Below are positions 18,727 through 23,165 of a stretch of DNA of 64,000 nt, in pieces (the first letter of the stretch is position 1; each line of letters begins with the position of its first letter). The position numbers and the translations under genes were made by a program. Below the pieces are notes generated by a model. It was not told the DNA's origin and ran no database searches. It saw nothing but the letters and a program-made list of their open reading frames with translations. The DNA comes from an uncultured Actinomycetes bacterium (lineage in GTDB: Bacteria; Actinomycetota; Acidimicrobiia; Acidimicrobiales; RAAP-2). The stretch spans positions 310,001-374,000 of the forward strand of contig CAIYAP010000007.1 in assembly GCA_903924205.1 (NCBI GenBank), read 5' to 3'.

Positions 18727-18730
<4 letters not shown>

Positions 18731-21700
18731 TCGCTACCCGCCTGCAACTTGCCGGTGACGCGCTGGGAGACCACCTTGGAGGATCCACCGGGCACCATGG
18801 TCACGCCGTAGAGGGCGTCAGCGGCTTCCATCGTGCGCTTTTGGTGCGTCACGATGAGCAACTGAGCCTCATCGCGGAACTCGGCGACCAGCGACAAGAA
18901 GCGCTGGAGGTTGACGTCGTCGAGAGCGGCTTCGACCTCGTCCATCATGTAGAACGGCGAGGGGCGCGAGCGGAAGGTCGAGAAGAGGAAGGCCAGGGCC
19001 GCCATGGAACGCTCGCCACCGGAGAGCAAGCTCACGCGGCGCACGTTTCGTCCCATGGGTCGAACCTCAATCTCCACGCCGGTGTTCAGCGGGTCGTCGG
19101 GCTCCGTGAGCGACAAGCGACCCTGTCCCCCGGGGAACAGCATCCCAATCAAGGCCGAGAAGTGCTCGTTCACGTCGGCAAAGGCCGAGGTGAAGGTCTG
19201 CATGATTTCGTCGTCCAAGGCGCGAATAGCTTCCTGCAATTCGCGACGCGCGTGACGTACGTCGGCGACCTGGGCGTCGAGGTCCTTATAACGCTCCTCG
19301 AGAGCGGTGAGCTCCTCGAGAGCCAAGGGATTAATCGGACCGAGCGAACTGAGACGGGCTTCGAGTTCCGCGAGGCGCTGCTCCAAGGTCACGCCGTCGG
19401 GTAGGTCGAGCTCGACGGGCTCGTCAAGCACTTCCCAGTCGCCGTGCAGGTCGCGCTGCACGGCTTCGGCCAGAGTCGAGAGTTTGACGGTCAATTCCGC
19501 CAATTCAATGTCGGCGCGACGCGTGGATTCGGTGAGTTCCGTGAGCTCGGCATCCACCGTGGCGCGACGACGACGAATTTCTTCGAGGCGCTCGGCGCTG
19601 GCACGGCTGGCTTCGAGCTGCTCACGGTAGGTCGACTCCAGGGCAGCCTGGTTCGTACGAACGTCCTCGGCGGCGATCTCAACAATCTGTTCGAGACGAC
19701 CCAGGGCGTCGAGTTCGAACTCCAAGCGACGACGACGCTCGGCGGCGACTTCACGCTCGGCGGCGTGACCAGCCAAGCGGCGCTCCACTTCGGCGAGACG
19801 GTCCCTATTGACCTGACGACGAGTGGTCACCGATGACTCGAGGCGCGCAATGTCGCGTCGCAGTTCAGCCACTGATTCACGCTTGGCGTCCAGCGTGGCT
19901 TTCGCTTCGTCCGCCCACTTCGCTCGCTGACCCGCGTCGGCCGCAGCCGCTTCGAGTTGCGGCAGTCGAGCAGTTTCGGTGGCGAGCTCCGCATCGAGTT
20001 GGCTGACCGCGCCGTGCGACTCGCTTACCTGGGCGCGGAACTTTTCGAGAGTGGCGGCAATGTCAACGAGATCGGCCTGCGCACGCGACAGTTCGCGGCG
20101 CAGCCGCTCCACGTCGTTGGTGGCCTTCACCTGAGCGAGCTGTGCGGCCTGGTGAGCCTCACGAACCGCGCGCAGGGCCTGGTCGGCAGCGCGCAGGGCC
20201 TCAGTGGCGGGGGCAACTTTGGCCTGCGCATCGGTCGCGGCGGCATCCGCCTCTTCGACCGAACTACGCGTCACGAGCGCGCGGCCCGACGCCACGCGCC
20301 AGCCGTTGCCCGCGAATCGGTCACCCTCACGCGTCACCACGACCAGCTCCGGGTGGGCGACCGCCACGTCAATGGCGCTCTCCCAGTTCTCGGCGACCAC
20401 GGTGCGACCAAAGAGGGCGTCGAGGACGGCAGTGAAGTGTGACGACGCGGACGAACGTGGTCGAACGTGATCGCGCAACAACACCGTGCCGACGGGCGCG
20501 GTAATCGGCGCCATCGAGGAAGTGGGGGCCGGCAAAATCAAACCCAGTCCACCCTTGTCGCGTAGGGCCTGAAGGGCGGCTCGGGCGGAGGTGCGGCCAT
20601 CAACCACGACCGCGCCCATGGCAACGTCCGCCGCGGACTCCACGGCGCGTTCCCAGCCGCCGTCCACGTCCACGAGGTCAAGGAAGGCACCGAGGACACC
20701 CTCGAGGCCACTGACGATGGCGCGGCCACCCGATCCGGATAGTTCTTCGAGAGCACGAGCGAGTGCTTCCGCACGCGCGGTCGCGCGAGCGGCGCCGTCG
20801 GTAACGTCACGCAGGGCCACACTCGCCGCCTCGCGAGCGGATTCACTAGCCGTCACGTGCTCGGCGGCGTCCGCGAGTGTCGCGGCAGCCTGCTCCCGGA
20901 GATTCTCGGCATCGGCCAGCTGGCTCTGCGCCTGGTCGCGACGCGACAAGGTCTCTTCCTCACGACGCTGTGCGTCATCGCGTTGTGTGCTGGCGCGCTG
21001 AAAAGTCGCCTGCGCCGCATCACGCGAACGCGTCAAGGTGGCGATCTGCGCCCTGGCCGCGTCCAAGTCGTGCACCGGATTTGAGGCCGATGCGACTGAC
21101 CAGGTGGCGTCATACTGCTCACTCGCGAGGGCGAATTCCTGTTCGCGCTCCGCGAGCTGAGCGCGCTGCGGCTCGAGAGTGACTTCGTCCGCATCAATCT
21201 CGCCTTGCTCCCCCACGAGCCGAGCGGCTTCACCTTCGAGGGTGGCGATGACGTTTTCGTCGAAGGATGCATCGAGAGCTTCGCGTAGTCGACGGCGACG
21301 CTCGACGATGACCGAGGCCAAGCCGCGGGCTCGTTCGCCCAGTCCCTGAAGTTGACCCAAGGTGGAGGCGAGAATTTCTTCGCGACGAGAGGCCATCTCC
21401 GCCGCGGCCCGGGTGGCCTGCGCGTCAAGAAGCACCAACTCGTGACGCTTTTCGCGCTCGGTGCTGGCGCCGCCTTGCAAGGTGGCGTCCAGCTCGCTGC
21501 GACGCGCTTCGTAGGCGTGGCGACGACTGGAGAACAGTGCTCGACGCACTGCCTGCAAATCGCTCTCCACGTCGGTGTAACTGCGCGCGGCCGCGGCTTG
21601 ACGCTCGAGCGGACGCATCTGTCGGCGCACTTCGCGCACCAGGTCGCCGAGACGCTCCAAGTTTTCGGCCGTGGTGGCGAGACGGCGCTCGGCGCGTTCC

Positions 21701-22221
21701 TTGCGACGACGGTGCTTCAGCACCCCGGCGGCCTCTTCGATCACCGCGCGACGGTCCTCGGGACGGCTGTTCAAGATGGAGTCGAGTTGGCCCTGACCAA
21801 TGATCATGTGCTGGTGTCGACCGACACCCGAATCGCTCAGCAGTTCTTGAATGTCGAGCAAACGACAGGGCTGACCATTAATGGCGTATTCCGAGTCACC
21901 GTTTCGAAAGAGGGTGCGACTGATCGTGACTTCGGCACCGTCGATGGGCAACTTGCCCGACGCGTTGTCCAAGGTGAGAGCGACCTCCGCGCGGCCGAGG
22001 GCGGGACGTGAACTCGTGCCGACGAAGATGACGTCTTCCATCTTCGCGCTGCGCATCGCGCGGGTGCTTTGTGCACCTAAAACCCAGGACACTGCATCGA
22101 CGACGTTGGATTTGCCCGAGCCATTGGGACCGACAACCGCGGTCACTCCCTGCTCAAACTCCAGAACGGTGGCGTCGGCGAAGGACTTGAAGCCCTTCAT
22201 GGTAAGCCGCTTCAGAAACAT
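18727..22221 (-). CDS. smc: chromosome segregation SMC ATPase
   Basis: The 1164-residue protein has the N-terminal ATPase half (MFLKRLTMKGFKSFAD, VGPNGSGKSNVVDAVSWVLG), two long coiled coils, and a hinge around residues 490-640 (GLEGVLGAFLDLVDVD and GNGWRVASGRAL). The C-terminal half carries signature LLSGGERSMAALAFLF and Walker B FYMMDEVEAALDD. SMC organises and segregates the nucleoid. It sits between mutM and ftsY as in other actinobacteria. Confidence 0.98.
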
Positions 22222-22265: not shown

Positions 22266-23165
22266 CTAGGCCTGACACTTGGCGCAGAACACGTGCGTGC
22301 TGCCCCCGACCTTTTCGCCCCGCAAGGCGAAGCGACACTGGCCACAGGGCTCCCCCACGCGACCGGTCACTTGCAACTGCGCCTGAAAATTTCCCAACTT
22401 GCCGTCGGGGTCACTAAAGCCACCCTCGAGGCTAGTCCCACCCTGCTTGATCGACTCGGCCACGATCTCGGTCAAGGTGCGATGCAAGCGACGAAGTTCA
22501 ATGGATGACAGGCCGGCGGAGTTGCGGTCCGGGCGAAGTGCCGAGGAATACAAAGTCTCATCTATGCAGATCGGTCCGAGGCCGGCATAGAGGCGCTCAT
22601 CGGCCAGCGCGAGGGCCACCGGCGCGTCTGCGGCCTTCATGGTCGCGGCGAATAGCTCCGAGCCCACTTGGTCCACCGAAATGTCGATGGGTGACGAGGC
22701 CAGCGACGGATAGGCGCGGCGCAGCGACAGCCCGTCACCACCCAAGATGAACGAGGCGAGGCGAGGCAAGTCCACCGAGGTGCCGGCCGCCAAGGGTTCG
22801 GCCACCCACATTTGCAGCGTGCCGTCGGGGTCGGCGATGCGCCACTCAGAGCCCGCCGTCGGCGTGATGATGGCGTGAGTGTGCTTGGGCTTGACCACCT
22901 TGGCGTTCGCGGCGCGCGTCACCGAGTTGCTGGCCCCGAGGGCCACCACTAATGCCGAACCGCTATCGAGAGTGATGATGAGCTGGCGACCGAGGCGCTG
23001 CACCGTCTTCACCGTGCGGCCCTCCGCGAGGGCGCGGAACGCTTTCGAGGACGTGTGCTTGGCGCACACGGCCCCCGTGGTGAGGGTGAGGGTCTTGATC
23101 TTCTTTCCGACCAAGTCCCTCGAGATGATTGATCGAATGACTTCGACTTCGGCTAATTCCATCAT
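22266..23165 (-). CDS. mutM: MutM/Fpg-like protein lacking canonical catalytic residues
   Basis: The 299-residue protein sits at the standard mutM locus between rnc and smc and keeps the overall Fpg fold: ELAEVEV start, H2TH region, and zinc finger with CGQC and CAKC. However, the catalytic N-terminal proline is replaced (MMELAEVE), and the active-site lysine position reads RLGRQLII. HLGMSG has become ALGASN, DPRxFG has become DPDGTL, GNIY has become GPIC, and the zinc-finger arginine is serine (GGSTHVFC). In Fpg these residues do base excision, AP lyase chemistry and lesion probing. GGAGG lies 8 bases before ATG 23165, which overlaps the rnc stop. It is probably a non-catalytic DNA-binding homologue. 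Confidence 0.85.
   Translation of the reverse strand: MMELAEVEVIRSIISRDLVGKKIKTLTLTTGAVCAKHTSSKAFRALAEGRTVKTVQRLGRQLIITLDSGSALVVALGASNSVTRAANAKVVKPKHTHAIITPTAGSEWRIADPDGTLQMWVAEPLAAGTSVDLPRLASFILGGDGLSLRRAYPSLASSPIDISVDQVGSELFAATMKAADAPVALALADERLYAGLGPICIDETLYSSALRPDRNSAGLSSIELRRLHRTLTEIVAESIKQGGTSLEGGFSDPDGKLGNFQAQLQVTGRVGEPCGQCRFALRGEKVGGSTHVFCAKCQA

What the first reader, a model, noticed from the sequence alone, without database searches (positions are those of the whole stretch)
22266..23165. MutM at its normal locus has lost every canonical catalytic and probing residue
Seen: the start reads MMELAEVE instead of M-P-E-L-P-E-V-E; the lysine of RRxKYLLL is arginine (RLGRQLII); HLGMSG is ALGASN; DPRxFG is DPDGTL; GNIY is GPIC; and the zinc-finger arginine is serine (GGSTHVFC). 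Known: these are the N-terminal proline nucleophile, active-site lysine, void-filling triad, H2TH asparagine and zinc-finger arginine of Fpg. Inference: the protein folds like Fpg and keeps its four zinc cysteines but cannot do base excision. It may be a repurposed DNA-binding or lesion-sensing protein.
Basis: partly seen in the sequence, partly recalled or inferred. Interest (0 to 1): 0.72.

Follow-up and report, generated by a model that had tools for sequence, protein, structure and literature searches.

The report
Retained MutM with dismantled active site
A bacterial DNA-repair gene has lost the residues it needs to find and cut out damaged bases, yet evolution keeps it intact, and the same thing has happened several times in related bacteria, which points to an unknown second job of a textbook repair protein.

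Summary
Confirmed with corrections. The 299-aa ORF between rnc and smc has a full Fpg fold (AF2 pLDDT 94.6; Z 32 to MutM) but lacks Pro2, Lys60, His75, Met78, Arg114, Phe116, Asn198 and the zinc-finger Arg289; it keeps catalytic Glu3, Glu6 and four zinc Cys. A sister species (92% identical) shares the losses, so it is no sequencing error. In the genus, 11 of 96 MutM at this locus are degenerate, in four groups that are not one clade (AU p=3e-5). dN/dS inside the groups is 0.02-0.10: purifying selection, not decay. In an even draw of the order, 39 of 92 rnc-linked MutM are degenerate (19 of 50 families); more cases lie elsewhere in the phylum. All 58 degenerate proteins read in genus and order keep at least 4 of 5 residues of a helix motif (E223, R225, R226, R229, K240), absent from 30 outside Fpgs and from 7 separate canonical MutM in genomes with degenerate copies. 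Best reading: an rnc-smc-linked MutM subfamily has a second, non-excision function that outlives the glycosylase. Its nature is unproven. Acidic or proline replacements in the DNA cleft argue against lesion sensing through the old site. My paper searches found no description of it.

The parts
22266..23165 (-). degenerate (by inference glycosylase-dead) MutM/Fpg homologue, 299 aa
23162..23776 (-). rnc (RNase III), listed from a TTG; its stop TGA overlaps the mutM start (ATGA)
18727..22221 (-). smc (chromosome condensation ATPase), directly downstream
22446..22499 (-). residues 223-240 of the degenerate MutM: helix after H2TH with E223, R225, R226, R229, K240
   Evidence: motif kept at >=4 of 5 in 58 of 58 degenerates of genus and order, 0 of 30 outside Fpg, 0 of 7 separate canonical copies; helix 221-240 in the model
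22728..22790 (-). residues 126-146: insertion of 21-22 aa between the beta domain and H2TH, in canonical and degenerate members of the genus
   Evidence: absent from 5 of 5 order outgroups aligned; modelled with confidence
22275..22346 (-). zinc finger: C274, C277, C294, C297 kept, Arg289 replaced by Ser

Best explanation
The gene encodes a glycosylase-dead member of an rnc-smc-linked MutM subfamily. Shown: fold kept (model); residues that distort DNA and flip the base lost; protein under strong purifying selection; the same loss in several lineages; a basic-helix motif (E223 R225 R226 R229 K240) kept at 4 or 5 of 5, and Glu6, Glu8 and Cys294 always kept, in the degenerates read in genus and order. 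Inferred: the subfamily gained a second, non-excision function before the glycosylase was lost, and that function is what selection now protects. Most likely it works as a non-cutting binding protein whose exposed basic helix docks on a partner of the chromosome or RNA housekeeping module it sits in (SMC, RNase III, or nucleic acid), not through the old lesion cleft. Where it occurs, excision of oxidised bases is left to another Fpg-type paralogue and to MutY.
For: Genus: 11 of 96 MutM degenerate, all 11 with rnc and smc on the fetched stretch. All 11 lost H75, M78, R114, T115, F116, H157, N198 and R289, each at least 99% conserved in 80 full-length canonical relatives. dN/dS in 9 unsaturated degenerate pairs 0.023-0.103 (19 canonical pairs 0.011-0.059); omega=1 rejected in all 10 pairs, 2dlnL 131.6-333.8. 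Not one clade: dlnL 100.5, p-AU 3.4e-5. Order: 39 of 92 in an even draw, 19 of 50 families; with 11 further loci that I had picked partly for low Fpg scores, 47 of 103 and 20 of 50. Further cases: 4 of 23 loci of the class search, 11 of 24 of the phylum search. Motif at >=4 of 5: 58 of 58 degenerates (57 at 5 of 5), 48 of 66 canonical rnc-linked, 22 of 23 class loci, 23 of 24 phylum loci, 0 of 30 outside Fpg, 0 of 7 separate canonical copies. The motif was chosen on degenerates against outside Fpg, so only the class, phylum and separate sets are independent checks. 36 of 47 degenerate order genomes have a TIGR00577 match at E<=1e-60, about its cut-off. AF2 model pLDDT 94.6, Z 32.0 to 2f5q/1r2y.
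Against: No function was observed; partner docking is inference from a motif and gene order. The motif may be structural (salt bridges); no coordinates were available to place it. Inside the genus, degeneracy goes with small genomes (estimated median 1.56 vs 2.27 Mb, not corrected for kinship), which would also fit relaxed selection on repair. 30 of 73 degenerates keep Pro2 and 62 keep Glu3, so some AP-site chemistry cannot be ruled out for those. W169, at 0.95 in degenerates, is Ser in the window protein. One degenerate phylum locus (G538) has a motif score of 3. That degenerates occur only with the motif is weak evidence by itself, since most rnc-linked canonical proteins carry it too.
Confidence: 0.7

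Rival explanations
1. Relaxed selection: in reduced genomes MutM repair is no longer needed and the gene is decaying slowly, with no new function.
For: Degenerate members of the genus have small genomes (estimated median 1.56 vs 2.27 Mb, n=11 and 85, MWU p=3e-7 without kinship correction). Divergence from canonical is raised (window 44% median identity vs 74% canonical-canonical).
Against: dN/dS 0.023-0.103 inside the four groups with omega=1 rejected in all ten pairs; 11 of 11 reading frames open at 299-301 aa; specific residues lost while others stay invariant; in the wider order degenerates also sit in large genomes, for example G192 with 4.9 Mb.
Confidence: 0.07
2. Altered-specificity enzyme: still acts on DNA, for example AP-site or single-strand lyase or binding, with a rebuilt active site.
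For: Glu3 kept in 62 and Pro2 in 30 of 73 degenerates. In E. coli Fpg, R108, N168 and R258 mutants lose AP-site activity much less than 8-oxoG activity, if at all (PMC4737139, section 11 read). Group D (G022, G112) keeps Pro2, Glu3 and Lys60.
Against: The window lacks Pro2 and Lys60. In mycobacterial Nei2, P2A and K51A abolish AP lyase and K51A also the glycosylase (PMC11323726, passages read). Only 4 of 73 keep P2, E3 and K60 together; Asp, Glu or Pro stand at the phosphate-binding Asn in 65 of 73.
Confidence: 0.15
3. The kept motif and fold are structural only: the ORF is needed for co-translation or stability of rnc and smc products (operon spacer with a folding constraint).
For: mutM starts inside the rnc stop (ATGA), and the gene stays beside rnc, and beside smc where the stretch reaches it (82 of 103 order loci show both, 21 rnc only).
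Against: A spacer would not hold omega at 0.02-0.10 nor keep 5 helix residues at >=4 of 5 in 58 of 58 proteins. ORF distances to rnc and smc vary, so tight coupling is not general.
Confidence: 0.08

Closest known systems
Fpg/MutM (formamidopyrimidine-DNA glycosylase, TIGR00577)
   Same: fold over the whole length (Z 32.0 over 273 residues), Glu3, Glu6, H2TH helices, four zinc Cys; locus between rnc and smc as in canonical relatives
   Different: lacks Pro2, Lys60, the His and Met of HLGM, the Arg and Phe of DPRxF, the H2TH Asn and the zinc-finger Arg; below the TIGR00577 cut-off
AlkD2 (HEAT-like repeat relative of AlkD; PMC4433238, abstract and outline seen)
   Same: glycosylase relative with the fold kept, the DNA-penetrating element lost, weak DNA binding, no excision
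   Different: unrelated fold (recalled); a less conserved second copy beside AlkD, whereas here the copy at the ancestral locus is the degenerate one
Mycobacterial Nei2 (PMC11323726, abstract and passages seen)
   Different: Nei2 keeps Pro2, Glu3 and Lys51 and is an active enzyme; other subfamily
M. tuberculosis Fpg1 next to rnc (PMC2734929, passages seen)
   Same: same neighbour, rnc
   Different: strand-cleavage assays are reported for it; it was not aligned here, and the one Mycobacterium MutM in my outside set has none of the five motif residues (L107)

Membership tests
Fpg/MutM glycosylase | Fpg fold: beta sandwich, H2TH, zinc finger | tested here: met
   AF2 pLDDT 94.6; Foldseek 1r2y TMt 0.90; Z 32.0, rmsd 2.3 A over 273 residues
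Fpg/MutM glycosylase | N-terminal Pro2 nucleophile | tested here: not met
   Met in the window and in G118
Fpg/MutM glycosylase | catalytic Glu3 | tested here: met
   E3 in the window and in 11 of 11 degenerates of the genus
Fpg/MutM glycosylase | Lys of RRGK, His of HLGM, H2TH Asn and zinc-finger Arg (DNA backbone contacts; roles recalled) | tested here: not met
   R60, A75, P198, S289
Fpg/MutM glycosylase | void-filling Met, Arg, Phe | tested here: not met
   A78, D114, T116
Fpg/MutM glycosylase | NCBIfam TIGR00577 curated cut-off 203.3 bits | tested here: not met
   146.6 bits
Fpg/MutM glycosylase | excision of 8-oxoG or FapyG | not testable with these tools
   needs purified protein
rnc-smc-linked MutM subfamily with the ERRRK helix (defined here) | E223 R225 R226 R229 K240 and position beside rnc and smc | tested here: met
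   ERRRK in the window protein; rnc and smc adjacent
rnc-smc-linked MutM subfamily with the ERRRK helix (defined here) | a shared second function | not testable with these tools
   inferred from conservation only
AlkD2-type pseudo-glycosylase | HEAT-like repeat fold | tested here: not met
   the model aligns over its whole length with Fpg structures; the likeness is one of kind, not of family

The most novel reading that the evidence does not exclude
MutM next to rnc and smc in several lineages of Actinomycetota is a two-job protein whose unknown non-repair job is the more essential one. It has outlived the glycosylase repeatedly (8 changes of state on a rough order tree, more cases elsewhere in the phylum), leaving a widespread pseudo-glycosylase family filed under a repair-enzyme family, which acts through an exposed basic helix in chromosome or RNA housekeeping.
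Probability: 0.55. Interest if true: 0.85.

Novelty: new variant of a known kind. Interest (0 to 1): 0.74.

Why it matters
MutM is a model DNA glycosylase and is usually treated as a single-purpose repair enzyme (recalled). A subfamily in which catalysis is expendable but the protein is not implies a second function that may also be present, unnoticed, in the active canonical members that carry the same helix motif (48 of 66 canonical rnc-linked proteins read). It offers a natural separation-of-function series for asking what that is. It also warns against scoring these genes as active 8-oxoG glycosylases when repair capacity is read from genomes.

Tried and rejected
Second canonical MutM as the explanation inside the genus: not found in the five degenerate genomes searched (G000, G013, G016, G019, G022: two PF01149 hits each, one at the locus and one MPEILE type that canonical members also have). 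The other six degenerate genomes were not searched with PF01149.

One shared origin of all degenerates in the genus: rejected by AU test on 10 of the 11. The joining of A and B is unsure (support 79/29 in the careful tree; 98 in the quick tree).

Loss of the whole GO system: the MutY ORFs of 9 degenerate genomes keep the catalytic Glu, Asp and Cys motif by eye. An Nth search of the genus gave no match over cut-off in 99 genomes; where I compared places, the hits were the MutY ORF.

The strand motif FTQGG and the genus insertion as markers of the second function: FTQGG-like in 31 of 47 degenerate and 27 of 56 canonical order proteins, so not a clean marker. An insert of like length is also in G123, G255, G271 and G374, while most order degenerates are about 277 aa and lack it. 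I gave both up in favour of the helix motif.

Wide genome-contig scan with the degenerate profile: of 80 loci kept, four are genus members (43-44%); 30 of the other 76 were aligned later and none is degenerate; the remaining 46 were not read.

Net charge: degenerates 0 to +5 vs canonical mean +5.4 (sd 2.4), weak. The order tree is FastTree on RNC+SMC (645 columns), so '8 changes' is rough. dS was saturated in pair G013-G122, not used for omega. Two of 105 order loci gave no MutM next to rnc (G177, G141; contig ends or absence). G041 is borderline (3 of 7 key residues kept), and its TIGR00577 match may be the linked copy itself. Three genus genomes (G031, G103, G106) had no match. Solved-structure sequence search showed only Fpg-type and related entries.

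Papers: searches listed no report of a dead MutM at this locus that I recognised; 'acidimicrobi' with 'formamidopyrimidine' gave 0 papers.

Full report
OBSERVATION. The ORF 22266..23165 (-) translates to 299 aa beginning MMELAEVE. It matches Pfam Fapy_DNA_glyco (63.5 bits) and H2TH (45.8) over cut-off and zf-FPG below it. TIGR00577 gives 146.6 bits against a cut-off of 203.3. The start overlaps the rnc stop (ATGA), smc follows, and the upstream frame holds no MPELPEVE. Glu3, Glu6 and four zinc cysteines are present, so 'every catalytic residue' overstates it.

FOLD. AlphaFold2 on a 36-row alignment gave pLDDT 94.6, pTM 0.90. The best solved structures are MutM-DNA complexes: Foldseek 1r2y TM 0.83/0.90, VIA-align Z 32.0, rmsd 2.3 A over 273 residues.

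GENOME. The window lies in a 1.66 Mb, 7-contig assembly, 97.5% complete. The only other PF01149 protein is an MPEILE-type paralogue on contig C2 that looks intact. A MutY with catalytic Glu, Asp and Cys motif is present. Four named contigs have the same lengths as contigs of genus members: PNAH01000008.1 (titled Acidimicrobiaceae), NCBE01000138.1 (Actinobacteria), JAKABC010000066.1 (Actinomycetes) and JAGWHY010000030.1 (titled Acidobacteriota, so one title disagrees). I read the order as Acidimicrobiales; that is inference, helped by G130's contig length, 2,158,157, which is the one I recall for Acidimicrobium ferrooxidans.

GENUS. 96 of 99 held genomes have the gene; in 92 of 96 both rnc and smc are on the fetched stretch, in the other four one of them. 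Reading the 96 gave 11 degenerate proteins in four groups: A G000+G118; B G013, G016, G081, G122; C G019, G114, G115; D G022, G112. The other 85 are canonical where readable (80 full length; G021 has Ile for the Met). Among columns at least 97% conserved in the 80, those lost in all 11 are H75, M78, R114, T115, F116, H157, N198 and R289; K60 is Arg in A, B and C; Pro2 is lost in A and C only; E3, E6 and the four Cys are kept in all 11. G118 is 92% identical to the window, so sequencing error is excluded.

SELECTION. A pairwise GY94 script gave dN/dS 0.039 (A), 0.033, 0.070, 0.074, 0.103 (B), 0.028, 0.031, 0.033 (C), 0.023 (D); the tenth pair is saturated. 19 canonical pairs gave 0.011-0.059. 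Omega=1 is rejected in all ten degenerate pairs (2dlnL 131.6-333.8). I conclude that the genes are functional.

ORIGINS. A 36-taxon tree of SMC, RNC, PlsX, CoaD and ACP (LG+C20) makes each group a clade. C and D lie among canonical species; A and B are weakly joined. Holding 10 degenerates together costs 100.5 lnL, p-AU 3.4e-5; G081 was not in this tree. So at least two, most likely three, losses within one genus. Degenerate genomes are small (estimated median 1.56 vs 2.27 Mb, n=11 and 85, MWU p=3e-7, not corrected for kinship).

ORDER AND PHYLUM. A TIGR00577 search of 298 order genomes and a follow-up of low scorers showed degenerate MutM next to rnc and smc in other families. I then surveyed rnc-linked MutM through rnc. 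In the even draw, 92 loci outside the genus had a MutM beside rnc, 39 of them degenerate, in 19 of 50 families. Adding 11 loci from the follow-up, most of them picked for low scores (8 degenerate), gives 47 of 103 and 20 of 50 families. Degenerate means at most 3 of the 7 residues K H M R F N R (46 of 47 keep at most 2), canonical at least 6; none lies between. Many sit in one large clade, others apart; 8 changes by Fitch on a rough tree that includes five genus members. In several families two or three zinc Cys are gone, but C294 never. 36 of the 47 genomes have a TIGR00577 match at E<=1e-60, about its cut-off; the degenerate copies of the genus stayed below it (best 2.1e-56). I infer a separate canonical Fpg in most; seven such copies were read, five of them in genomes counted among the other 11. 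The best-scoring loci of class and phylum searches add 4 degenerates of 23 and 11 of 24 read; they were picked by similarity to a degenerate protein, so these are not frequencies.

MOTIF. Comparing 58 degenerates with 30 outside Fpg pointed to E223, R225, R226, R229 and K240 on the helix 221-240 after H2TH. At 4 or 5 of 5 it is in 58 of 58 degenerates, 48 of 66 canonical rnc-linked, 22 of 23 class and 23 of 24 phylum loci, 0 of 30 outside Fpg and 0 of 7 separate canonical copies. The two class and phylum misses read DRRRR, both changes conservative. The simplest history is that the rnc-linked subfamily acquired a second role with this helix, after which the glycosylase became expendable, often with another Fpg to cover repair. 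That the helix is an exposed docking surface is inference from its spacing of charged and hydrophobic residues.

WHY NOT LESION SENSING. Of 73 degenerates, position N198 is Pro 30, Asp 28, Glu 7; H75 is Asp 27 or Glu 5; K60 is kept in 7. In E. coli Fpg, N168D leaves 0.2% and R108L/Q 0.3% of 8-oxoG activity, although AP-site cleavage suffers less (PMC4737139, section 11 read); the same paper reports little change of KM, so loss of these residues alone need not abolish DNA binding. In Nei2, K51A kills glycosylase and lyase (PMC11323726, passages). Acidic side chains and proline at the DNA phosphate site make binding through the old cleft unlikely, but direct tests are needed, above all for group D, which keeps Pro2, Glu3 and Lys60.

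LIMITS. The motif was found post hoc. The order tree is rough. No structure coordinates, complexes or assays were available. The partner (SMC, RNase III or nucleic acid) is a guess from gene order.

Noticed in passing
L398, L399, L401, L402, L403, L405, L408, L409, L411 (family f84, same phylum): rnc-linked MutM that keeps the cleft residues but appears to lack the N-terminal proline: the frame reads V/M-ELPEVE with a GTG or ATG at the proline position; in two of four loci checked (L401, L405) this follows a stop codon directly.
   Followed up: partly
L002:1093-1875 (-) and L245-L248: A second Fpg/Nei-type protein (MPEILE start) with intact-looking catalytic residues in the five degenerate genomes read; 37 of 41 genus genomes have two or more PF01149 hits. 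It may carry the remaining excision activity.
   Followed up: partly
99 genus genomes: No Nth-type endonuclease III match over the curated cut-off; the hits compared coincide with the MutY ORF, so this genus may lack Nth.
   Followed up: no
G106 (97% complete), G031, G103: No rnc-type MutM match; G106 may have lost the gene.
   Followed up: no
f7 and f32 loci: rnc-linked canonical MutM without the helix motif, possibly replacement of the locus copy by an ordinary MutM.
   Followed up: no
window 22728-22790: Insertion of 21-22 aa between the beta domain and H2TH in the genus, conserved in canonical members (R138, L139 in all 80) and kept in the degenerates.
   Followed up: partly
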